DNA of 63,134 nt from Actinomycetes bacterium (GTDB taxonomy: Bacteria > Actinomycetota > CALGFH01). The notes below the pieces were generated by a model. That model did not search any database. It had not been told where the DNA came from and saw only the letters and a list, made by a program, of their open reading frames with translations. Below are positions 31,679 through 41,839 of this stretch, in pieces. The position numbers and the translations under genes were made by a program. How positions within the stretch are numbered: position 1 is the first letter of the stretch; the number at the start of each line of letters is the position of its first letter. The DNA is taken from the NCBI GenBank assembly GCA_036000965.1, contig DASYUT010000161.1:1-63134 (forward strand), written 5' to 3'.

Positions 31679-33004
31679 ATGCGCCTACCGCAACCGCGTC
31701 GCCTCGTTCCTCTCGTCCGGGCCCTGAGCGCCTGGCTGCTCGTGCTCCTCGCATCCGTGGCCGTGCTGCCCGGGTTCGTGCCCGGCGCCGCCGCGGACCC
31801 GGCCCGGAGCGCGGCTCCCCTGGTCGCCGTGGCCACGTTCGCCGGGGACCAGGGCGGCGCCGCGGAGGACGAGGCCCGCGACCGCCGGGCCTGGCTGAGC
31901 GGGCGGGAGGCGTCGGGCCGGGCGGCCGCCGACCAGGCCGCCGCGGAGCGGGTCGCCCGCGGGTCCGGGGTCACGGCGGCGACGCCAGCAGCATGGGTCG
32001 TGCCCGCCGGGGCCGACCAGACCATCCCGCCGCTCACCCTGCGCGCCTACCGCACCGCGGCGGCCTGGGCCTCGGGCTACGACCCGGGCTGCCGGCTGTC
32101 GTGGAGCGTCCTGGCCGGGATCGGTCGCATCGAGTCCAACCACGGCCGCCACGCCGGCGCGGCGGCGCGGTTCAGCCAGGGTGGCGACGTGACCCCGCCG
32201 ATCCTCGGTCCCGCCCTGGACGGCCGGGGCGGCTTCGCCGCGATCGCCGACTCCGACGGGGGCCGCCTGGACGGCGACCGGGTATGGGACCGCGCGGTCG
32301 GCCCGATGCAGTTCCTGCCCTCGACCTGGCGGTCGCTCGGGCGCGACGGCAACGGCGACCAGGTCGCCAACCCCGGGAACTTGTTCGACGCCGCGGTCAG
32401 CGCGGCCGCCTACCTCTGCCTGAGCGGCGCCGGCGACCTGTCCGACCCGGCCCGGCTCCGCCAGGCCGTCTACGGCTACAACCACTCCTGGTCCTACGTG
32501 GACAGCGTGCTCGGCTGGGCCACGTTCTACGCGCAGCGGATCAGCGGCGGGCCGGGGGTCCTGCCCCCGCTGCCGCCGACCACCACGGCGTCGACCACCA
32601 CGGCGTCGACCACCACGGCGCCGACCACGCCGGCCTCCACCACCACCGGCCCGGCCACCACGCTCGCACCGACGACGACACGCCCGGCCACCACGGTCCC
32701 GCCCGCGACCACCGGGCCGCCCGCGACCACCGGGCCGCCGTCGACCACCGGGCCGCCGTCGACCACGACGCCGAGGACCACCGGCACGACCGCGCCGCCT
32801 TCGACCACGACGCCAGCGACGACGACCACCCGGGCGCCGACCACGACGGCGCCGTGCGCACCGCCGCCGACCACGACGAGCCTGCCGCCGGGCTCGACCA
32901 CCACCACGACGACCACGACCATGCTGCCGCCCGGCTCGACCACCACCACGACGACGCTGCCGCCCTGCCCGACCTCCACGACGGTCGGCACGAGCCGCCC
33001 GTAG
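31679..33004 (+). CDS. Secreted lytic transglycosylase with a Thr/Pro-rich tail
   Basis: 441 aa from ATG 31679. A signal peptide (about 1-40) includes SAWLLVLLASVAVLPG. A helical region precedes the lysozyme-like domain: WSVLAGIGRIESNHGRHAG with catalytic Glu152, VGPMQFLPSTWRSLGRDGN, AVSAAAYLCLSG and LRQAVYGYNHSWSYVDSVL. This fits a family GH23-type or MltB-like murein lytic transglycosylase. The last about 145 residues are a low-complexity tail of TTT, PP and TTGPP units, probably a cell-wall-spanning or glycosylated stalk. It cleaves peptidoglycan outside the membrane. Confidence 0.88.
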   Translation: MRLPQPRRLVPLVRALSAWLLVLLASVAVLPGFVPGAAADPARSAAPLVAVATFAGDQGGAAEDEARDRRAWLSGREASGRAAADQAAAERVARGSGVTAATPAAWVVPAGADQTIPPLTLRAYRTAAAWASGYDPGCRLSWSVLAGIGRIESNHGRHAGAAARFSQGGDVTPPILGPALDGRGGFAAIADSDGGRLDGDRVWDRAVGPMQFLPSTWRSLGRDGNGDQVANPGNLFDAAVSAAAYLCLSGAGDLSDPARLRQAVYGYNHSWSYVDSVLGWATFYAQRISGGPGVLPPLPPTTTASTTTASTTTAPTTPASTTTGPATTLAPTTTRPATTVPPATTGPPATTGPPSTTGPPSTTTPRTTGTTAPPSTTTPATTTTRAPTTTAPCAPPPTTTSLPPGSTTTTTTTTMLPPGSTTTTTTLPPCPTSTTVGTSRP

Positions 33005-33152: not shown

Positions 33153-36100
33153 TCAGCGCAGCAGTAGCACCAGGGGCAGGACCGGGCCGGCGCCGGCCTG
33201 GCGCAGGGCGGCGCCGGCGGTGGTCAAGGTCCAGCGGGAGCTGGCCACGTCGTCGACCAGCAGCACGGCGCCGGGCGGCACGAGGTCGGCAGCGGCCACC
33301 GCGACCGCACCGTGCACGTTGCGGCACTGGTGGGTGCTGTTGGACATGGAGGCCTGGGGGGTGGCGTCCCGGGTCCGCTCGAGGACCGGGTGCAGCGGGA
33401 GCCGGCCGAGGTCGGCGATGCGGGCGGCCAGGCTCTCCACCAGCCGGGGGTGGGAGCGTGAAGGCACGAACGTCACCCAGCTCGGCCGGGTCGCCCACTC
33501 CCAGCGGGCGAGCAGCCGGACCACTGCCCGTACCACCTCGTCGGGCACCGGCCCGTCGGTCGCCAGCAGCCCGGCGATGACCCGCCCCCAGCCGGCGTCG
33601 GCCGCCCCGGCCATGGCCAGCGCCCGCCCGGGCTCCACCCGCAGCTCGGGCGGGATGGTGCCGACCAGGCCGTCCACGCCCCGCGGCCATAGCCGGCGGG
33701 GCTCGACCACGGTGTCCCGGCCGAGCAGGAACGCGCTCGCCTCGGCAGCGAGCGCCGGGTCGACCTCGGCCGCGGGCCGCTGCCCGGTGCAGTTGGCGCA
33801 GCGGCCGCACTCGGCCGGGTCCGGGTCGTCGAGCTGGCGGCGCAGGTAGGCCATGAGGCAGGCGTCGGTGGTGGCGTAGGCGACCATCGCGGCCTGCTCG
33901 GCCTCGCGGGCGGCAGCGACCCGGCCGTGGCGCTCCTCGTCGTAGGTCCAGGGAGCGCCGGTGCGCGTCCAGCCCCCGCGCTCGCGGCGCACCGCCCCCT
34001 CCACGTCCAGGACCTTGAGCATCGCCTCGATGCGGCCGCGGCCGAGGTTCACCGCCTCCTCGATCGCGGCCGCTGGTACCGGCCCGGACGCCCGCTGCAG
34101 GGTGCCCAGCACCCTCGCCACCAGGTCGCGGGGCGGGAACGCGGTGGTCGCGAACCAGTCCCAGATCGAGCGGTCCTCCGCACCGCACAGCAGCACCGCC
34201 TCGGCCCGCGGCAGGGCCCGGCCGGCCCGGCCGACCTGCTGGTAGTAGGTGACGGGGGAGTCGGGGGACTGGAAGTGGACCACGAAGGCCAGGTCGGGCT
34301 TGTCGAAGCCCATGCCAAGGGCGGAGGTGGCCACCACCGCCTTGACCTGGCCCGCCCGCAGGGCGTCCTCGACCGCGGCGCGCTCCTCGGGGTCGGCCTT
34401 GCCGCTGTAGGAGCGCGCGTCGACCCCCCGCGACCGGAGCCAGGCGGTGACCCGCTCGGTGTCGGCCACGGTGAGGCAGTAGACGATGCCGGAGCCGGGC
34501 AGCCGGGGGACCTGCTCGGCGAGCCAGGCCAGCCGCTCGGCCTGGCTCGGCAGCCGCAGGACCGACAGGACCAGGCTCTCGCGGTCGAGCGGCCCACGCA
34601 GGGTCACTGGCGCGACGCCGAGCTGGTCGGCGACGTCGGCCATGACCCGGTGGTTGGCGGTGGCCGTGGTCGCCAGCACCGGCACGTCCGGCCCGATGGC
34701 GTCGAGCACCCGGATGATGCGCCGGTAGTCGGGGCGGAAGTCGTGGCCCCAGTCGGAGATGCAGTGCGCCTCGTCGATGACCAGGAGCCCGGCCGCGGCC
34801 GACAGGGTGGGCAGCACGTCGGTGCGGAACTGGGGGTTGTTGAGCCGTTCGGGCGAGACCAGCAGCAGGTCGACCCCGCCCGCGGCCAGCGACCGCTCCA
34901 CCTCCGACCACTCGTCGTGGTTGGTCGAGTTGATCGTGGCGGCGCGGATGCCGATGCGCCGCGCGGCCTCGATCTGGTCGCGCATCAGCGCGAGCAGCGG
35001 CGACACGAGCAGCGTGGGGCCGGCTCCGGCGTCGCGCAGCAGGCGGGTGGCCAGGAAGTACACGGCCGACTTGCCCCAGCCGGTCCGCTGGACGACCAGC
35101 GCCCGCCGGCGGTCCACGACGAGCGCGCCGACGGCGGCGAGCTGGTCGGGGCGGAGCACCGCTCCCGGACCGGCCAGCGCCGCGAGCAGCTCCTGGGCCC
35201 GCGCCGGGAGCGTGGCCGGATCGACCGGCCGCGCCGGCGGGCCGGACCGCCGGGCCGGGGCGGGCGCCGGGCCGCCCACCGGGCCTGTGCCGCCGGCGGT
35301 TGGGACCGGGCCGCCGCCCGCCGGGTCGGGGCCCGGGCGGGCCCGGACGCGGCCGTTGGCAGATGGCGTGGCGCCGTTCCCGGTCCGGGTCGCCGGCAGG
35401 GTGGTCGCCTCGGGACGGCCACGGCTGTCGGTGGCTGGTCGGGCACCAGTGCCGCCGTTGGCCGCCGGCGAGGCAGCCTCGGACCGGCGGCGGGTGTCGG
35501 CGCGGCGCAGGGTGCGGCCGCAGCGGGGCCACGGGGCCCAGCCCGCGGGCAGCGGCGGCCCCGGGAGCCACTCGAGGTCGGCGAGGGTGCCGAGGCCTCG
35601 GGCCGCGGCCTCGGCGAGGTGGATGCGGAGCAGGTGCGCGGTGGCGCGCGCGTCGGACAGGGCCGAGTGCGGCTCGGCGTGCTCGATGCCGAAGGTCTGG
35701 CAGCAGTCCACCAGCCGGCATTCCACCTCGGGGTGGAGCAGCCGGGTGAGCTGCGCCGTGCACAGCGCCGCGACAGGTGGGAGCGTGCGGCCGGCGAGCT
35801 GGAACTCCCCCCGGAGGAAGCCGATGTCGAACAGGACGTTGTGGGCGACCACGACGGCGCCCTGCAGCAGCCCGGCCACGTCGCCGGCGACCTCGGCGAA
35901 GGCTGGCGCGCCGGCGACCATGCCGTCGGTGATGCCGTGGATCTCGGTGGCCTCGACCGGCCGGTCCGGGGCCAGGAGGGTCTCGTACTCCTCGACCACC
36001 GACCCGTCGGGCGCCAGGCGCACGATGCCGATCTCGAGGGCCCGGTGCAGCGGCCACGGCTGCGTGCCGGTCGTCTCGAGGTCGACCACCGCCCAGGGGG

Positions 36101-36212
36101 TGGCGCCGAGCTCGGCCCGGGCCGAGCTCGGCGCGCCGTCCTCTGGCAGCTCGTCCCGGTCGGGGCGGCCCTCGGACGTCGCCGAGCCCGCCTGGCTCAC
36201 CCCACCGGCCAT
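33153..36212 (-). CDS. recQ: Exonuclease-RecQ helicase-phosphoribosyltransferase-like fusion protein
   Basis: 1019 aa from ATG 36212, which has GGAGGGG upstream. Three domains are fused. (1) A DEDDh exonuclease (epsilon/RNase T-like), residues about 38-215, with VVDLETTG (D44, E46), VVAHNVLFDIGFL and HSALSDARATAHLL. (2) After an Arg/Pro/Gly linker, a RecQ-type helicase with VVQRTGWGKSAVYF (Walker A), LLVIDEAHCISDWGHDFRPDY, ATTATANHRV, TSALGMGFDKPDLAFVVHF and YYQQVGRAGR, plus the zinc site DACLMAYLRRQLDD and ECGRCANC. (3) A C-terminal PRTase-like motif VLLVDDVASSRWTLTTAG. RecQ unwinds DNA 3' to 5' during repair; the attached exonuclease gives a Werner-protein-like layout. Confidence 0.9.
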   Translation of the reverse strand: MAGGVSQAGSATSEGRPDRDELPEDGAPSSARAELGATPWAVVDLETTGTQPWPLHRALEIGIVRLAPDGSVVEEYETLLAPDRPVEATEIHGITDGMVAGAPAFAEVAGDVAGLLQGAVVVAHNVLFDIGFLRGEFQLAGRTLPPVAALCTAQLTRLLHPEVECRLVDCCQTFGIEHAEPHSALSDARATAHLLRIHLAEAAARGLGTLADLEWLPGPPLPAGWAPWPRCGRTLRRADTRRRSEAASPAANGGTGARPATDSRGRPEATTLPATRTGNGATPSANGRVRARPGPDPAGGGPVPTAGGTGPVGGPAPAPARRSGPPARPVDPATLPARAQELLAALAGPGAVLRPDQLAAVGALVVDRRRALVVQRTGWGKSAVYFLATRLLRDAGAGPTLLVSPLLALMRDQIEAARRIGIRAATINSTNHDEWSEVERSLAAGGVDLLLVSPERLNNPQFRTDVLPTLSAAAGLLVIDEAHCISDWGHDFRPDYRRIIRVLDAIGPDVPVLATTATANHRVMADVADQLGVAPVTLRGPLDRESLVLSVLRLPSQAERLAWLAEQVPRLPGSGIVYCLTVADTERVTAWLRSRGVDARSYSGKADPEERAAVEDALRAGQVKAVVATSALGMGFDKPDLAFVVHFQSPDSPVTYYQQVGRAGRALPRAEAVLLCGAEDRSIWDWFATTAFPPRDLVARVLGTLQRASGPVPAAAIEEAVNLGRGRIEAMLKVLDVEGAVRRERGGWTRTGAPWTYDEERHGRVAAAREAEQAAMVAYATTDACLMAYLRRQLDDPDPAECGRCANCTGQRPAAEVDPALAAEASAFLLGRDTVVEPRRLWPRGVDGLVGTIPPELRVEPGRALAMAGAADAGWGRVIAGLLATDGPVPDEVVRAVVRLLARWEWATRPSWVTFVPSRSHPRLVESLAARIADLGRLPLHPVLERTRDATPQASMSNSTHQCRNVHGAVAVAAADLVPPGAVLLVDDVASSRWTLTTAGAALRQAGAGPVLPLVLLLR

Positions 36213-36302
36213 GCCGCCGCTCCCCTCCGGGCACCAGTACCCCATCAGGCGGCAGCATACGGCCCGCCCCGGACAACAGGAGACCCGCCCGGCCCGTCCT
36301 GT

Positions 36303-36377
36303 GGACGCCCGGAGGGCGGTGTCAACTGGACGCCCGGAGGGCGGTGTCAACTGGACGCCCGGAGGCCGGTGTCAACC
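36303..36377. repeat. 3 x 25-bp tandem repeat between recQ and a small ORF
   Basis: Units at 36303-36327, 36328-36352 and 36353-36377 share GGACGCCCGGAGG(G/C)CGGTG followed by TCAAC(T/C). On the minus strand each contains TTGAC, and the TGA of the last copy is the stop codon of the 55-aa ORF. A partial fourth copy continues to about 36386. Confidence 0.94.
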
Positions 36378-36539
36378 GGCGGTGTCGGCGGCCGCGGCCA
36401 GCTCGGCGGCGACCGCGTCGGCGCCCAGGCCGATCATCCAGGTCAGTGGGACGTCCGGGGAGAAGCGTCGCATGGTGGCGTCGAGCTCGGCCTTGGAAGC
36501 GTCGTCGAGTTGGGGGGCGCCTCCGGCCAGCCGCCACAC
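36372..36539 (-). CDS. Possible small protein or gene remnant (55 aa)
   Basis: 55 aa from GTG 36539; no good ribosome site is visible and the frame stays open upstream (…QREVVWRLAGG). The composition looks coding rather than random: LDDASKAELDATMRRFSPDV, PLTWMIGLGADAVAAELAAA. Its stop lies in the last copy of the 25-bp repeat. It may be a real small gene, or the 3' remnant of a longer one. I do not recognise a family. Confidence 0.35.
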   Translation of the reverse strand: MWRLAGGAPQLDDASKAELDATMRRFSPDVPLTWMIGLGADAVAAELAAAADTAG

Positions 36540-36625: not shown

Positions 36626-37261
36626 TCAGCGCTGCTCGGCCAGCACCACCGTGCTGAGGATCTTGTCGGCAAAGGTCTGCCTGCGCGCGTCGAACGCCGC
36701 GTAGATGTAGCCGACGAGGCAGATCCCGTCCAGGAAGTGGCAGATGTCGCGCACGAACGCCATCAGGGGCCCGATCGGCTGCCCGTCCGACATGCGCACC
36801 AGCCGCAGGTTGAGGGCCTTCTTGCCCCAGCTCTGCCCCGTCTGGCCCTGCATGATCCAGCGGTTGTAGATCCAGATGCCGAGGCTGAGCAGCCAGCCGA
36901 GCGCCGCCAGGATCCCCAGCCCGACCGACGGGCTGCCGTCGGTGGCCGACAGGTTGTACGGCGTCACCAGGATGATGGCCGGGATGGCCTGGATGAGCCC
37001 GTCGATCAGGTAGGCGCCGACACGCTGGATCCAGCTTGCCAGCGGCCGTCCCATGTAGAAGCCTGGCTGGTCGGTGGTGTAGCCGGGCTGTCCGTAGCCG
37101 GCGCCGGCCGGCGCCGACGGGTATGGGGATGTCCCCCCGTAGCCCGGCTGCGCCGGCTGCTCGTAGGCCGGCGGCTGGCCGTACTGCGGCGGCCGGTCGT
37201 ACTGCGGCGGCTGGCTCGAGCCTGGCTGCTCGGGCTCGTTCGGTCCGTACCCCTGTGTCAT
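36626..37261 (-). CDS. RDD family membrane protein with Tyr/Pro/Gln-rich N-terminus
   Basis: 211 aa from ATG 37261 (GGGAAGGAG upstream). Residues 1-70 are a low-complexity Pro/Gln/Tyr/Gly region (RPPQYGQPPAYEQPAQPGYG). The RDD domain follows: MGRPLASWIQRVGAYLIDGL, helices around 88-130, QGQTGQSWGKKALNLRLVRM and FDARRQTFADKILSTVVLAE. It closely resembles the next gene, so the pair probably arose by duplication. It is an inner-membrane protein of unknown function. Confidence 0.9.
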   Translation of the reverse strand: MTQGYGPNEPEQPGSSQPPQYDRPPQYGQPPAYEQPAQPGYGGTSPYPSAPAGAGYGQPGYTTDQPGFYMGRPLASWIQRVGAYLIDGLIQAIPAIILVTPYNLSATDGSPSVGLGILAALGWLLSLGIWIYNRWIMQGQTGQSWGKKALNLRLVRMSDGQPIGPLMAFVRDICHFLDGICLVGYIYAAFDARRQTFADKILSTVVLAEQR

Positions 37262-37290
37262 TTGACTCCTTCCCTTCCAGGGGTGCTCGG

Positions 37291-37851
37291 CTATCTGCCG
37301 GCGAGCACCACCGTGTTCACGATCTTGTCGGCAAAGGTCTGCCTGCGCGCGTCCCAGAGCGGGAACAGGTAGCCGATCAGGCAGATCCCGTCCAGGGTGT
37401 GGAGCAGGTCACGCACGAAGGCCATGACCGCCCCCACCGGCAGCCCGTCCGCCATGCGGACCAGCTTCAGGTTGAAGACCCGCTTGCCCCAGCTCTGCCC
37501 GGTCCGGCCCTGGGTGAGCAGCCGGTTGGCCACGTACAGGACGAAAGCGGCCAGGTAGCCCATGAGGATGATGCCGCCCCCCGTGCTGCTGTCCCCCTGG
37601 CCAGCCGCGCTGGCCAGGACGCCGGCGACGATGACAGGCACGAAGGTCACCATCTGGTCGATGAGGTAGGCGCCGACCCGCTGGGGCCAGTTGGCCAGCT
37701 GCCGCCCCATGTAGGTCCCGGGTCCCTCGAGGGGCGCGTAGCCGGGCTGGCCGTAGCCGGGCGGGACGGACGGGTACCCGGGAACCGGCGGGTGTCCAGG
37801 CTGACCGGAGCCGGGCCGGCCCGGCTCCGGTGGCGGATATCCTTGGGACAT
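37291..37851 (-). CDS. RDD family membrane protein
   Basis: 186 aa from ATG 37851, with AAGGGG upstream. A short Pro/Gly/Tyr-rich N-terminus leads to MGRQLANWPQRVGAYLIDQM, two hydrophobic segments, QGRTGQSWGKRVFNLKLVRM and WDARRQTFADKIVNTVVLAG. It is a close paralog of the gene 29 bp downstream and a more distant one of the gene at 17.2 kb. The cluster continues upstream with a DUF4870 protein and a DUF2752 protein on the same strand. Confidence 0.9.
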   Translation of the reverse strand: MSQGYPPPEPGRPGSGQPGHPPVPGYPSVPPGYGQPGYAPLEGPGTYMGRQLANWPQRVGAYLIDQMVTFVPVIVAGVLASAAGQGDSSTGGGIILMGYLAAFVLYVANRLLTQGRTGQSWGKRVFNLKLVRMADGLPVGAVMAFVRDLLHTLDGICLIGYLFPLWDARRQTFADKIVNTVVLAGR

Positions 37852-37910
37852 CGAGTCGGTTCCCCTTACGTGCTCGTGGGCCGAGCGCGTCTGCGCCCGC
37901 GGCCCCGTGC

Positions 37911-38549
37911 TCACACCGGCTTGGCCTGCTGCTCGGCGATGTCGCCGAGCACGGGAAGCTTGAAGTGCCGGCCCGAGAAGCCCTGGATCATCAGCACGAT
38001 CCACACCACGAAGAACGCGAGCGACAGCAGGAACAGCAACAGGTCGAGCACGGTCCCGGTGATGATGCTGTTGAGGATGCTGACGGCGATCCAGACCGCC
38101 CCGAACAGGATCGCCTGCATGGCGTGGAAGCGGACCTCCGGGCGCTTGTCGGTGAAGAAGAAGATCAGCCCCGTGATGAAGGTCAGCACATAGGACAGGC
38201 CGGATGCCACGTTCTCGGCCAGCCCGCCACTCTGCTGGGACTGGTACCCGGGTGGCGGGCCCGCGGGCGGGTAGCCGCCCGGCGGCTGCTGTTCCCAGGC
38301 CTGCCCCGGCTGGCCCTGCCAGCCGGCCGACCCGGACGGGGGTGGGGGCGGCGACCCGTAGCCCTGCTGCTGGCCCCAGTCGCCGGGCGGGGGTGGCGGG
38401 GACGGCGGGGACGACCACCCGCCCTGGCCCGCCGGGGGTGTCCCGGCCGGCGGGTAGTCCGGCTGGGGAGGGTTCACCGGTGCGCCCTGGTCCTCGGGGT
38501 CCCGGCGTGGCTCGTCGGGCAGGTCCCGAGGTGGGGTTCCCTCGTTCAT
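37911..38549 (-). CDS. DUF4870 (Tic20-like) membrane protein
   Basis: 212 aa from ATG 38549 with AAGGAGG upstream. About 110 residues of Pro/Gly/Gln-rich sequence precede a DUF4870 domain: ASGLSYVLTFITGLIFFFTD, EVRFHAMQAILFGAVW and two further helices, ending in GFSGRHFKLPVLGDIAEQQA. The E-V-R-F-H-A-x-Q motif is the domain signature. The domain is found in small membrane proteins of unknown function. Its layout mirrors the neighbouring RDD proteins, a disordered Pro-rich head plus a small membrane domain. Confidence 0.88.
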   Translation of the reverse strand: MNEGTPPRDLPDEPRRDPEDQGAPVNPPQPDYPPAGTPPAGQGGWSSPPSPPPPPGDWGQQQGYGSPPPPPSGSAGWQGQPGQAWEQQPPGGYPPAGPPPGYQSQQSGGLAENVASGLSYVLTFITGLIFFFTDKRPEVRFHAMQAILFGAVWIAVSILNSIITGTVLDLLLFLLSLAFFVVWIVLMIQGFSGRHFKLPVLGDIAEQQAKPV

Positions 38550-38613
38550 AGGTCCTCCTTGTCGTACGGGCGGCTCGACCGGTCCAGCGCCGGGCGAACA
38601 TCGTGGCGATGCG

Positions 38614-39081
38614 TCATATCCGACCGAACCGGTGCAGCTGGAACAGCCAGCTCCCTACCGCGAGCACCCCGACCACGAGCCGGACGTGGCGCTGGCGGGC
38701 GGGCGGCCACGTGGTGGCCTCGGGGGCCAGGCCGGCCGCCCTTGCCGCCATGAGCACCGTCATGACCAGGGTCATCCCGGCGAGCAGGAGCACGAACGGG
38801 TTGGCGGCGAGCGCGGCCTGCAGGTGGCCGGCTGCCAGCGAGGTGGCCGCCGTGGTCATCCCGCACATCGGGCAGGGGATGCCGGTGGTCAGCCGCAGCA
38901 GGCAGGGCGCCGTCAGCCCGGTGGCGTGGCTGGCGGCCGGGTAGACGAACGAGGCACCAGCCGCCACCAGGCCGGTCAGCGCCAGGCGCTCGGGCGTCGA
39001 GGTCGGGCGCCATGCCAGGAGGCAGGCGACGGATGGCCGGGTGAGTCGGGCAGCTCGTGCGGGCGTCTCCGTGTTCGACAT
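38614..39081 (-). CDS. DUF2752 membrane protein
   Basis: 155 aa from ATG 39081. The family motif IPCPMCGMTTAATSLAAGHL (CPxCGxT) lies between two membrane helices; further helices are at the N-terminus (LALTGLVAAGASFVYPAASH) and C-terminus (LVVGVLAVGSWLFQLHRFG). DUF2752 proteins are small inner-membrane proteins with a Cys pair, of unknown function. The gene is first in a run of four small membrane-protein genes on the minus strand. Confidence 0.88.
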   Translation of the reverse strand: MSNTETPARAARLTRPSVACLLAWRPTSTPERLALTGLVAAGASFVYPAASHATGLTAPCLLRLTTGIPCPMCGMTTAATSLAAGHLQAALAANPFVLLLAGMTLVMTVLMAARAAGLAPEATTWPPARQRHVRLVVGVLAVGSWLFQLHRFGRI

Positions 39082-39483
39082 GTCCGTCCTGCTCCAGGGC
39101 AACGCAGGCCATGCTCACCGCGTCGATTCCGTGCGGGTCGGCGCAGTGAACCATATGCGCATGGGCGCAGCAATCCTTGTACTCCTTCGGAACGCGTTCG
39201 TCCCGCTGTAGCCGCTCGGCCGCCTGGTCGGCGAGCGTCGTGCCCGTGGCAGCGTCCCGGCCTCGGGGGATCGCTGCCTCGGGGGATCGCTGCCTGGGGG
39301 ATCCCAGCCTCGGGAACCGCGACCTCGGGGATCCCGGCCTGGGGATCCCGGCCGGGGGGGGGGTTCCGCCCTCCCGTTCCAGGCCACGGGGTTGCCGGCC
39401 GGGGAGCCGGGTGGCAGCATCCGTTTCCGGTCGGGTCCGTGACCGGGACGCCCGACCACCAGATCGACCAGGCCGGGGGCAAC
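39082..39483. other. 402-bp intergenic region upstream of purN
   Basis: Between DUF2752 (minus) and purN (plus). It holds an AT-richer stretch (about 39100-39200) and an array of imperfect GATCCC/GATCGC repeats at 39258-39360 (CCTCGGGGGATCGCTG and relatives, alternating with CGGGGATCCCGG). A minus-strand frame across 39085-39260 looks locally protein-like but has no start. No promoter could be set with confidence. Confidence 0.45.
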
Positions 39484-40257
39484 ATGGCAGACGTCAGGCG
39501 GATGGTCGTGCTGGTGTCCGGCCACGGCTCGAATCTCCAGTCGCTCATGGACGCAGCCGCCGACCCGTCCTACGGGGCCGAGGTGGTGCTCGTGGCAAGC
39601 GACCGGCCGGGCGCGTACGGCCTCGAGCGGGCCCGGGCGGCCGGCGTCGAGACCGCGGTGGTCCGACCCGTCGACTTCCCCGACCGGGCCGCGTTCGACG
39701 AGGCCCTGACCGGCGTGGTCGCCGCGGCCCGGCCCGATGTCGTCTGCCTGGCCGGGTTCATGCGGATCCTCGGCCCCCGGTTCGTCCGCAGCTTCCCCGA
39801 CCGCATCGTCAACACCCACCCGAGCCTGCTGCCCGCCTTCCGGGGCGTTCACGCCGTCCGTGACGCCCTGGCCTACGGCGTTCGGGTGACGGGCTGCACC
39901 GTCCACCTCGTCGACGAGGAGGTCGACCATGGCCCGGTGCTCATGCAGGCGCCGGTCGCGGTCGAGGACGGCGACGACGAGGCGAGCCTGCACGACCGCA
40001 TCAAGCAAGAGGAGCACCGGCTCCTGCCCGCCGCGGTCCGGCTGGTCGCGCACGGCCGGGTGCGCCTGGACGGCAGGCGCGCCCGGCTGCTGGCCGGCGG
40101 CCCCGAGCCCGCCGCGATTCCGGGCCCCGCTGCCGGTCCGGGCACTGCTGCCGGTCCGGGCACTGCTGCCGGTCCGGGCACTGCTGCCGGCCCTGCCGGC
40201 AGCGGACGCCGCGGGCGGGCGCCCGACCGCGAGCCCATCGACGGAGGAACGCCGTGA
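39484..40257 (+). CDS. purN: Phosphoribosylglycinamide formyltransferase (PurN) with repetitive C-terminal tail
   Basis: 257 aa from ATG 39484. The formyl-transfer core is complete: [17 protein letters not shown] at the N-terminus, [13 protein letters not shown], the catalytic [20 protein letters not shown] (His of HPSLLP) and [16 protein letters not shown] (catalytic Asp). About 50 residues beyond the usual end form an Ala/Pro/Gly tail with AAGPGT repeats encoded by an 18-bp tandem repeat. It formylates GAR with 10-formyl-THF in purine synthesis. Its stop overlaps the purH GTG in GTGA. Confidence 0.94.
40129..40182 (+). repeat. 3 x 18-bp in-frame repeat in the purN tail
   Basis: GCTGCCGGTCCGGGCACT is perfectly repeated at 40129-40146, 40147-40164 and 40165-40182, followed by a partial copy. 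It encodes AAGPGT units. Confidence 0.95.
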
Positions 40258-41839
40258 CCGACCGCCAACCCATCCACCGCGCCCTCGTCTCGGTGTTCGA
40301 CAAGGCCGGCCTCGAGCGGCTCGCTGCGGCCCTGCGGGCGGCCGGCGTCGAGGTGGTGTCGACCGGCTCCACCGCCCAGGCCCTCGAAGGGCACGGCCTG
40401 ACCGTCACCCGGGTCGAGACGGTCACCGGCTTCCCGGAACTGCTCGACGGCCGGGTCAAGACCCTGCATCCCAAGGTGCACGCCGGCCTGCTCGCCGACC
40501 GGCGCCGCCCCGAGCACGCCGCCCAGCTCCAGGCGGCCGGGGTCGCCCCGTTCGACCTGGTGGTCTGCAACCTCTACCCCTTCGAGGAGACGGTGGCTGA
40601 CCCCCGGGCCGGCGAGGACCTGGCCGTCGAGCGGATCGACGTCGGCGGCTCGGCCATGGTGCGGGCGGCGGCCAAGAACTTCGCGTCGGTCGCGGTCGTC
40701 TGCGACCCGGCCGACTACGGCCTGGTCGAGGCCGCGCTGGCCGCAGGCGGGACCACGCTGGCCGAGCGCCGCGCGCTGGCTGCGCGGGCGTTCGCCCGGA
40801 CCGCCGCCTACGACGGCGCGGTGGCGGCCTGGTTCACCCGCGACCAGGCGTTCCCGGCGACGCTGCCCCTCACCGCCCGGCTCGTGCAGACCCTCCGCTA
40901 CGGCGAGAACCCCCACCAGGCAGCCGCTTTCTACGCCCTCGGCGGTCCGGGTCCCGCCGTCACGCCCGGCCGGGCCGCCCCGCAGGGCCCCACCCCGGCC
41001 CCGCGGCTGGCGCCGGCAAGGAGCTGTCCTACAACAACCTGCTGGATGCCGACGCGGCCCTCGGCCTGGTCGCCGAGTACGCCGACCGTCCGTTCGCGGT
41101 GGTCGTCAAGCACACCAACCCGTGCGGCGCCGCACCCGGTGAGACCCTGGACGCCGCCTACGCCGCCGCCCTGGAAGGCGACCCGGTGAGCGCCTTCGGC
41201 GGCGTCGTGGGCCTGTCCCGAGCACTCGACGAGGCCACCGCGCAGCGCCTGGCCGGGGTGTTCACCGAGCTGGTGCTCGCCCCCGGGTTCGACGCCCCGG
41301 CCAGGCAGGTGCTGGCCGGCAAGCCGTCACTCCGGCTCCTCGAGGTGGACCTGGCCAGCCTGCCCGGAGCGGGCGGGGCCCGGTCCCTGGCCGTGCGGTC
41401 GGTGGCCGGTGGCCTGCTCGTGCAGGAGGCCGACCTCGCGGCCGACGACCCGGCCGCCTGGACGGTCGCGGCCGGCGCTCCGCCCGCGCCGGCCACCCTG
41501 GACGAGCTGGCCCTGGCCTGGACGGTGGCCAGGCACGTGAAGTCCAACGCGGTCGTGCTCGTCAACCACGGACGGGTGGTCGGCGTCGGCGCCGGCCAGA
41601 TGAGCCGGGTCGACTCGGTCCGGGTCGCGGTCGCCAAGGCCGGCGCCCGGGCCGTCGGCGCGGTGGCCGGAAGCGACGCGTTCTTCCCGTTCCCCGACGG
41701 CGTGGAGGAGCTGGCCGCCGCCGGGGTCCGGGCCGTGGCCCATCCCGGCGGCAGCGTCCGCGACGCCGAGGTGACCGCCGCCGCCGACCGCGCCGGCCTC
41801 ACCCTCGTGCTCACGGGCCGCCGCCACTTCCGCCACTGA
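40254..41839 (+). CDS. purH: Bifunctional AICAR transformylase/IMP cyclohydrolase (PurH), frameshifted
   Basis: The GTG 40254 start overlaps the purN stop. The first part (to about 40965) reads correctly: [51 protein letters not shown] and [15 protein letters not shown]. The rest (from about 41010 to 41839) continues in another frame: [33 protein letters not shown] and [21 protein letters not shown] net -1 shift is needed somewhere in 40930-41010, a run of short C and G homopolymers. Purines require this enzyme, so a missing base in the read data, or programmed slippage, is as likely as a true mutation. It performs the last two steps of IMP synthesis. Confidence 0.9.

What the first reader, a model, noticed from the sequence alone, without database searches (positions are those of the whole stretch)
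33153..36212. Exonuclease-RecQ-PRTase three-domain fusion
A DEDDh exonuclease precedes a RecQ helicase in a single 1019-aa protein that also ends in a PRTase-like motif (LLVDDVASSRWTLT). RecQ plus PRTase is, from memory, common in Actinobacteria, but the N-terminal exonuclease makes it resemble the layout of human WRN (WRN has a different exonuclease subclass). All catalytic motifs look intact, so both activities may be combined at DNA ends.
Basis: partly seen in the sequence, partly recalled or inferred. Interest (0 to 1): 0.6.

Follow-up and report, generated by a model that had tools for sequence, protein, structure and literature searches.

The report
Exonuclease fused to RqlH-type RecQ helicase
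One bacterial genome (apparently an actinobacterium) joins a DNA-trimming enzyme to a helicase of the RqlH/PsyrT family, a pairing absent from 135 other copies of that helicase examined here, and it hints at what this poorly understood helicase does in cells.

Summary
ORF 33153-36212 (-), 1019 aa, has a strong Shine-Dalgarno before its ATG, a DEDDh 3'-5' exonuclease (aa 42-194, all catalytic residues present), a ~100-aa A/P/G/R-rich linker, and a RecQ-like helicase plus C-terminal PRTase-fold domain.

That is a named clade with published work: a 3'-5' helicase in M. smegmatis, and a PRTase-dependent genotoxin restrained by RqlI in E. coli. RqlH is common in this phylum (72 of 396 sampled genomes) and, as usual in Gram-positives, comes without RqlI here.

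The exonuclease is the exception. Of 136 distinct RqlH genes examined, including one at 61% identity in the same taxonomic family, only this one has it, fused or nearby. The resemblance to WRN is layout only: no RQC or HRDC hit, and a different exonuclease subclass. The closest working analogues are exonuclease-bearing DinG and the MrfA/MrfB pair.

Most likely it is a chromosomal repair enzyme coupling 3'-5' unwinding to 3'-5' trimming. It is a new variant of a known kind, seen in one draft assembly, with function inferred rather than shown.

The parts
33153..36212 (-). Fusion gene, 1019 aa: DEDDh exonuclease, linker, RecQ-like helicase, PRTase-fold domain
   Evidence: Single open frame; Pfam; PADLOC PsyrT over aa 338-1016
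36220..36228 (-). Shine-Dalgarno-like GGAGGGGAG, 7 nt before the ATG
   Evidence: Sequence printed
35631..36089 (-). DEDDh (RNase_T) 3'-5' exonuclease domain, aa 42-194; D44, E46, D129, H182, D187
   Evidence: Pfam E=3.9e-27; alignment with 15 other DEDDh domains; residue numbers
35208..35510 (-). A/P/G/R/T-rich linker, aa 235-335, containing an imperfect in-frame 34-aa repeat; no stop codon in any of the three frames of this strand
   Evidence: low confidence in the model over aa 206-320, as expected for a flexible linker
34641..35153 (-). RecQ-like helicase domain 1 (DEAD), aa 354-524; Walker A TGWGKS, DEAH
   Evidence: Pfam; 100 of 107 family members share RTGWGKSA
34215..34499 (-). Helicase domain 2, aa 572-666; motif VI QQVGRAGR
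   Evidence: Pfam, conservation
33789..33860 (-). Four-cysteine zinc module, Cys 785/802/805/808
   Evidence: Invariant cysteines in alignment of 29
33156..33770 (-). C-terminal PRTase-fold domain, aa 815-1019
   Evidence: AlphaFold pLDDT 94; Foldseek top matches are PRTase-fold proteins such as APRT, PurF, ShosT, ComF
33222..33263 (-). PRPP-binding loop LLVDDVASSRWTLT, aa 984-997; family consensus LLVDDxxDTGWT, so Gly replaced by Arg993
   Evidence: Column counts; profile match to PRPP synthetases

Best explanation
It is a chromosomal DNA-processing enzyme: an RqlH-type 3'-5' DNA translocase/helicase whose N terminus has gained a DEDDh 3'-5' DNA exonuclease on a flexible tether. Inferred working: the helicase loads on a 3' single-stranded tail or gap and tracks 3' to 5' while opening the duplex; the tethered exonuclease trims the 3' end of the strand left behind, so unwinding and removal of damaged or aberrant 3'-ended DNA are coupled in one polypeptide, as MrfA plus MrfB do as two proteins and exonuclease-bearing DinG does as one with opposite helicase polarity. 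The PRTase-fold domain probably binds PRPP or a nucleotide and sets when the enzyme is active. Shown here: architecture, presence of catalytic residues, family membership, absence of RqlI, no other RecQ-family helicase found in this genome. Inferred: polarity, coupling, repair role, role of the PRTase domain.
For: aa 338-1016 matches PsyrT end to end. RqlH of M. smegmatis is a 3'-5' helicase whose PRTase domain is dispensable for unwinding (reported in PMC4670107). All exonuclease and helicase catalytic residues are kept. The neighbours are housekeeping genes (sucCD, purH, malate dehydrogenase), not a defence island. No RqlI/PsyrA homologue was found in the genome (only a weak hit to a LOG-family-like protein), as in 99.6% of Gram-positives with RqlH (PMC4670107). 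No other RecQ-family helicase was found in a 99% complete genome: the next PsyrT-profile hits are no better than E=4e-13, whereas partial matches covering the helicase half reach about 1e-100 in other genomes. The tree of RqlH bodies places it next to the same-family genome G002, consistent with vertical inheritance of the helicase and later addition of the exonuclease. Helicase-exonuclease couples for crosslink repair exist: SaDinG needs both activities (PMC12345164); MrfAB (PMC11194089).
Against: No activity was tested. The fusion is seen in one draft genome. In E. coli, RqlH without RqlI is genotoxic through its PRTase domain (PMC4670107), which fits a simple repair role poorly. The exonuclease part of the full-length model is unreliable (no alignment depth there), so no domain contacts can be read from it. 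DEDDh enzymes can also act on RNA.
Confidence: 0.55

Rival explanations
1. A phage-defence or toxin-like protein of the PsyrT kind, in which the PRTase domain is the harmful part and the exonuclease is either a second effector against invading DNA or a built-in restraint that takes the place of PsyrA/RqlI.
For: Strong PsyrT match; E. coli and Nostoc plasmid relatives sit beside PsyrA. The E. coli pair lies inside a type I restriction-modification operon. The exonuclease is nearest a PADLOC candidate-defence family, PDC-S48. The fold search also lists ShosT, a PRTase of a toxin-antitoxin defence system.
Against: No PsyrA in the genome, housekeeping neighbourhood, and RqlH is a regular gene across the phylum, almost always without RqlI in Gram-positives (PMC4670107).
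Confidence: 0.2
2. The fusion is an assembly or consensus error, or the frame holds two products, with exonuclease and RqlH separate in the cell.
For: Draft genome of 358 contigs. The nearby purH is split by an apparent frameshift, so indel errors or real frameshifts exist on this contig. No second genome with the fusion was found.
Against: No stop codon lies in any of the three frames across the linker. In the other two frames the first stops fall at 34985, inside the helicase, and at 32527, beyond the gene's end. A single indel therefore cannot restore two clean genes. The linker holds a degenerate repeat with 102-nt (34-codon) spacing. Possible starts inside the linker lack a good Shine-Dalgarno.
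Confidence: 0.1
3. The exonuclease serves as an RNA-processing or structural module, for instance trimming RNA ends at R-loops or acting on RNA-DNA hybrids while the helicase unwinds.
For: DEDDh enzymes include RNases; B. subtilis DinG, with the same kind of exonuclease, is titled an exo(ribo)nuclease (PMC12525004, listed).
Against: Nearest families by profile are DNA-acting or defence-candidate DEDDh proteins; no RNA-specific domain present.
Confidence: 0.12

Closest known systems
RqlH / PsyrT (RecQ-like helicase with C-terminal PRTase domain; M. smegmatis RqlH, E. coli RqlH, P. syringae PsyrT)
   Same: aa 338-1016 is a near full-length member: helicase core, four-Cys module, PRTase-fold domain; no RqlI, as in most Gram-positives
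   Different: Adds an N-terminal DEDDh exonuclease and linker; none of 135 other RqlH genes examined has it
Exonuclease-bearing DinG (S. aureus, B. subtilis)
   Same: N-terminal DEDD 3'-5' exonuclease joined to an SF2 helicase in one chain
   Different: DinG is an XPD-like 5'-3' helicase and has no PRTase domain; here a RecQ-like helicase, expected 3'-5'
MrfA/MrfB of B. subtilis
   Same: 3'-5' SF2 helicase working with a DEDDh 3'-5' exonuclease
   Different: Two separate proteins; MrfA belongs to a different helicase group with no PRTase domain (family assignment from own knowledge)
Human WRN
   Same: N-terminal 3'-5' exonuclease followed by a RecQ helicase
   Different: WRN's exonuclease is DEDDy (own knowledge); WRN has RQC and HRDC, not detected here; no PRTase domain in WRN
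PADLOC candidate family PDC-S48
   Same: Its N-terminal ~195 aa is the best profile match to the exonuclease domain (E=9e-62)
   Different: PDC-S48 carries its own C-terminal ~200-aa part, absent here, and no helicase

Membership tests
RqlH / PsyrT | RecQ-like helicase core with family signatures | tested here: met
   TGWGKS, DEAHCISDWGHDFRP, TTATAN, QQVGRAGR conserved across 107 family members; PsyrT profile E=1.7e-240
RqlH / PsyrT | Four-cysteine zinc module after the helicase core | tested here: met
   Cys 785/802/805/808 invariant in 29 sequences
RqlH / PsyrT | C-terminal PRTase-fold domain with PRPP loop | tested here: met
   Model pLDDT 94 and Foldseek matches; profile match at the PRPP loop; loop Gly is Arg993
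RqlH / PsyrT | 3'-5' helicase activity | not testable with these tools
   Known for M. smegmatis RqlH (as reported in PMC4670107)
PsyrTA / RqlHI two-gene system | Adjacent PsyrA/RqlI (DprA-like) partner | tested here: not met
   No PsyrA homologue beyond a weak 59-position hit (E=1.4e-4) elsewhere in the genome, in a LOG-family-like ORF
DEDDh exonuclease | Exo I DxE, Exo II D, Exo III H....D | tested here: met
   D44, E46, D129, H182, D187
WRN-type RecQ | RQC winged helix and HRDC domains | tested here: not met
   No Pfam hit for either; a divergent winged helix cannot be excluded
WRN-type RecQ | DEDDy exonuclease | tested here: not met
   His at the Exo III position (H182), so DEDDh
DinG (exonuclease-bearing) | XPD/DinG-type helicase after the exonuclease | tested here: not met
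   DinG profiles match only the exonuclease part, aa 40-212

The most novel reading that the evidence does not exclude
The fusion reveals that RqlH helicases work with a 3'-5' exonuclease: a bacterial, independently evolved WRN-like nuclease-helicase in which a PRPP-binding domain gates DNA-end processing, and the exonuclease replaces RqlI as the safeguard against RqlH toxicity.
Probability: 0.12. Interest if true: 0.7.

Novelty: new variant of a known kind. Interest (0 to 1): 0.42.

Why it matters
RqlH is widespread, yet why most Gram-positives keep it without the RqlI protein that restrains it in E. coli is unknown. A natural fusion is a clue to a partner activity: it predicts that RqlH action and 3'-5' exonuclease action belong to the same step. 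It also gives a bacterial counterpart in layout to WRN that could be tested in a simple host.

Tried and rejected
Protein-query whole-genome searches failed repeatedly; family-profile queries were used instead. Reading the protein as a plain RecQ was rejected because the PsyrT profile covers aa 338-1016. Reading it as a PsyrTA pair was rejected for lack of PsyrA. Reading it as a mobile or phage gene was not supported: no matches in viral contigs and housekeeping neighbours. Long open frames upstream of some RqlH genes (up to 761 aa) were checked with a DEDDh profile and hold no exonuclease. A survey of Chloroflexota could not be run, and the M. smegmatis RqlH paper is not held, so its content is taken from PMC4670107. 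Literature searches found no report of an exonuclease-RecQ-PRTase fusion, but that library is partial. A search for ShosTA literature returned only unrelated papers.

Full report
What is there. The frame 33153-36212 on the minus strand is a single 1019-aa protein. A Shine-Dalgarno-like GGAGGGGAG sits 7 nt before the ATG. Third-position GC is high throughout, dipping only in the linker. Pfam gives an RNase_T exonuclease at 42-194, DEAD 354-524 and Helicase_C 572-666. All five DEDDh residues, the helicase Walker A and B residues and arginine fingers, and four zinc-ligand cysteines are present.

The helicase half is not a generic RecQ. The PADLOC profile for PsyrT covers aa 338-1016 from position 7 to 681 of 689 at E=1.7e-240. 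PsyrT is the same family as RqlH: a RecQ-like clade with a C-terminal PRTase domain, described in M. smegmatis as a 3'-5' helicase and in E. coli as genotoxic through that PRTase domain unless restrained by RqlI (PMC4670107). Pfam does not see the PRTase domain, so it was tested separately. A profile of aa 815-1019 and 28 relatives hits PRPP synthetase, HGPRT and PurF at the PRPP loop. Its AlphaFold model (pLDDT 94) has PRTase-fold proteins such as APRT, PurF, OPRT, ComF and ShosT as its best Foldseek matches; those E-values are modest (3e-3 at best) but the listed matches agree. The PRPP loop carries Arg993 where Gly is usual; 14 of 107 family members have Arg there, so it does not by itself mark a dead domain.

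How unusual is the fusion? Relatives came from plasmids, 80 loci of genome contigs, 100 related genomes and 396 genomes of the phylum (72 with RqlH at E<=1e-150). The phylum is not named by the tool; named relatives around it in the tree are Actinomycetota, so I take it to be that. Among 142 loci holding a near full-length RqlH, 136 distinct, only the window's own gene shows a DEDDh exonuclease, whether by tblastn or by a DEDDh profile run on six-frame translations. 136 of the 142 loci include at least 1.4 kb upstream of the match, so an adjacent separate exonuclease gene would have been seen too. The same-family genome G002 has RqlH at 61% identity with no exonuclease. No PDC-S48-like exonuclease passed E=1e-40 in G001 or G002. 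The RqlH tree puts the window protein and G002's on neighbouring branches at the base of a large group. They are not strict sisters in that tree, so vertical inheritance of the helicase is consistent but not proven. The simplest history is gain of an exonuclease domain on a resident RqlH.

Where the exonuclease came from. Its best profile is PDC-S48, a candidate-defence DEDDh family, N-terminal part only. The nearest sequences found are DEDDh proteins of the same phylum at 43-46% identity, whereas the two other DEDDh proteins of the same genome are at 32-37%. It is therefore not a recent copy of either.

Is the fusion real? No frame of the minus strand has a stop across aa 225-350. In the other two frames the first stop lies inside the helicase or beyond the gene. 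A single indel therefore cannot turn it into two clean genes; a lost stop codon would be needed. The linker holds a degenerate repeat with 34-codon spacing. Against this, the contig comes from a draft assembly, purH on the same contig looks frameshifted, and no independent genome repeats the fusion. I put an artefact at about 10%.

What it probably does. Helicase and exonuclease would share polarity: RqlH tracks 3' to 5', and the DEDDh domain removes nucleotides from 3' ends. The enzyme could unwind from a 3' tail and trim the tail left behind it. MrfA/MrfB (PMC11194089) and exonuclease-bearing DinG (PMC12345164) are precedents; SaDinG needs both activities for crosslink repair. The gene lies among housekeeping genes, no other RecQ-family helicase was found in the genome, and no RqlI is present. 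I favour a chromosomal repair role at 0.55, with a PsyrT-like toxin or defence role as the main rival at 0.2. The role of the PRTase domain is inference.

Comparison with WRN. Layout is similar, but RQC and HRDC are not detected, the exonuclease is DEDDh, and a PRTase domain is added. This is convergence of layout, not membership.

Verdict: observation confirmed, interpretation partly supported, new variant of a known kind.

Noticed in passing
window 40254-41839 (+): purH appears split by a frameshift: 40254-41189 carries the MGS domain and the start of AICARFT, 41099-41839 the rest in another frame. Either a consensus error or a real frameshift.
   Followed up: partly
window 36302-36379: Three tandem 25-bp repeats upstream of the fusion gene, each with TTGACA on the minus strand; found nowhere else in the genome at up to 2 mismatches. 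The copy farthest from the gene overlaps the stop codon of a possible short minus-strand reading frame.
   Followed up: partly
L004 4562-14641 (E. coli plasmid NZ_OX030731.1): A PsyrT-PsyrA pair lies between the S and R genes of a type I restriction-modification operon, suggesting a composite defence cassette.
   Followed up: no
G044 contig C10, 57878-59908 and 79033-81069: One genome of the same phylum carries two full-length RqlH genes about 19 kb apart.
   Followed up: no
window 36626-39102 (-): Consecutive small membrane-protein genes (RDD, DUF4870, DUF2752 types) with Gln/Pro-rich N termini directly upstream of the fusion gene.
   Followed up: partly
window 31679-33004 (+): SLT-type transglycosylase with a long Thr-rich C-terminal tail of low complexity.
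   Followed up: no
L176-L185 and L191: PDC-S48, a DEDDh exonuclease with a C-terminal ~200-aa part, is found essentially full length in 11 of 396 genomes; its second half is unidentified here.
   Followed up: no
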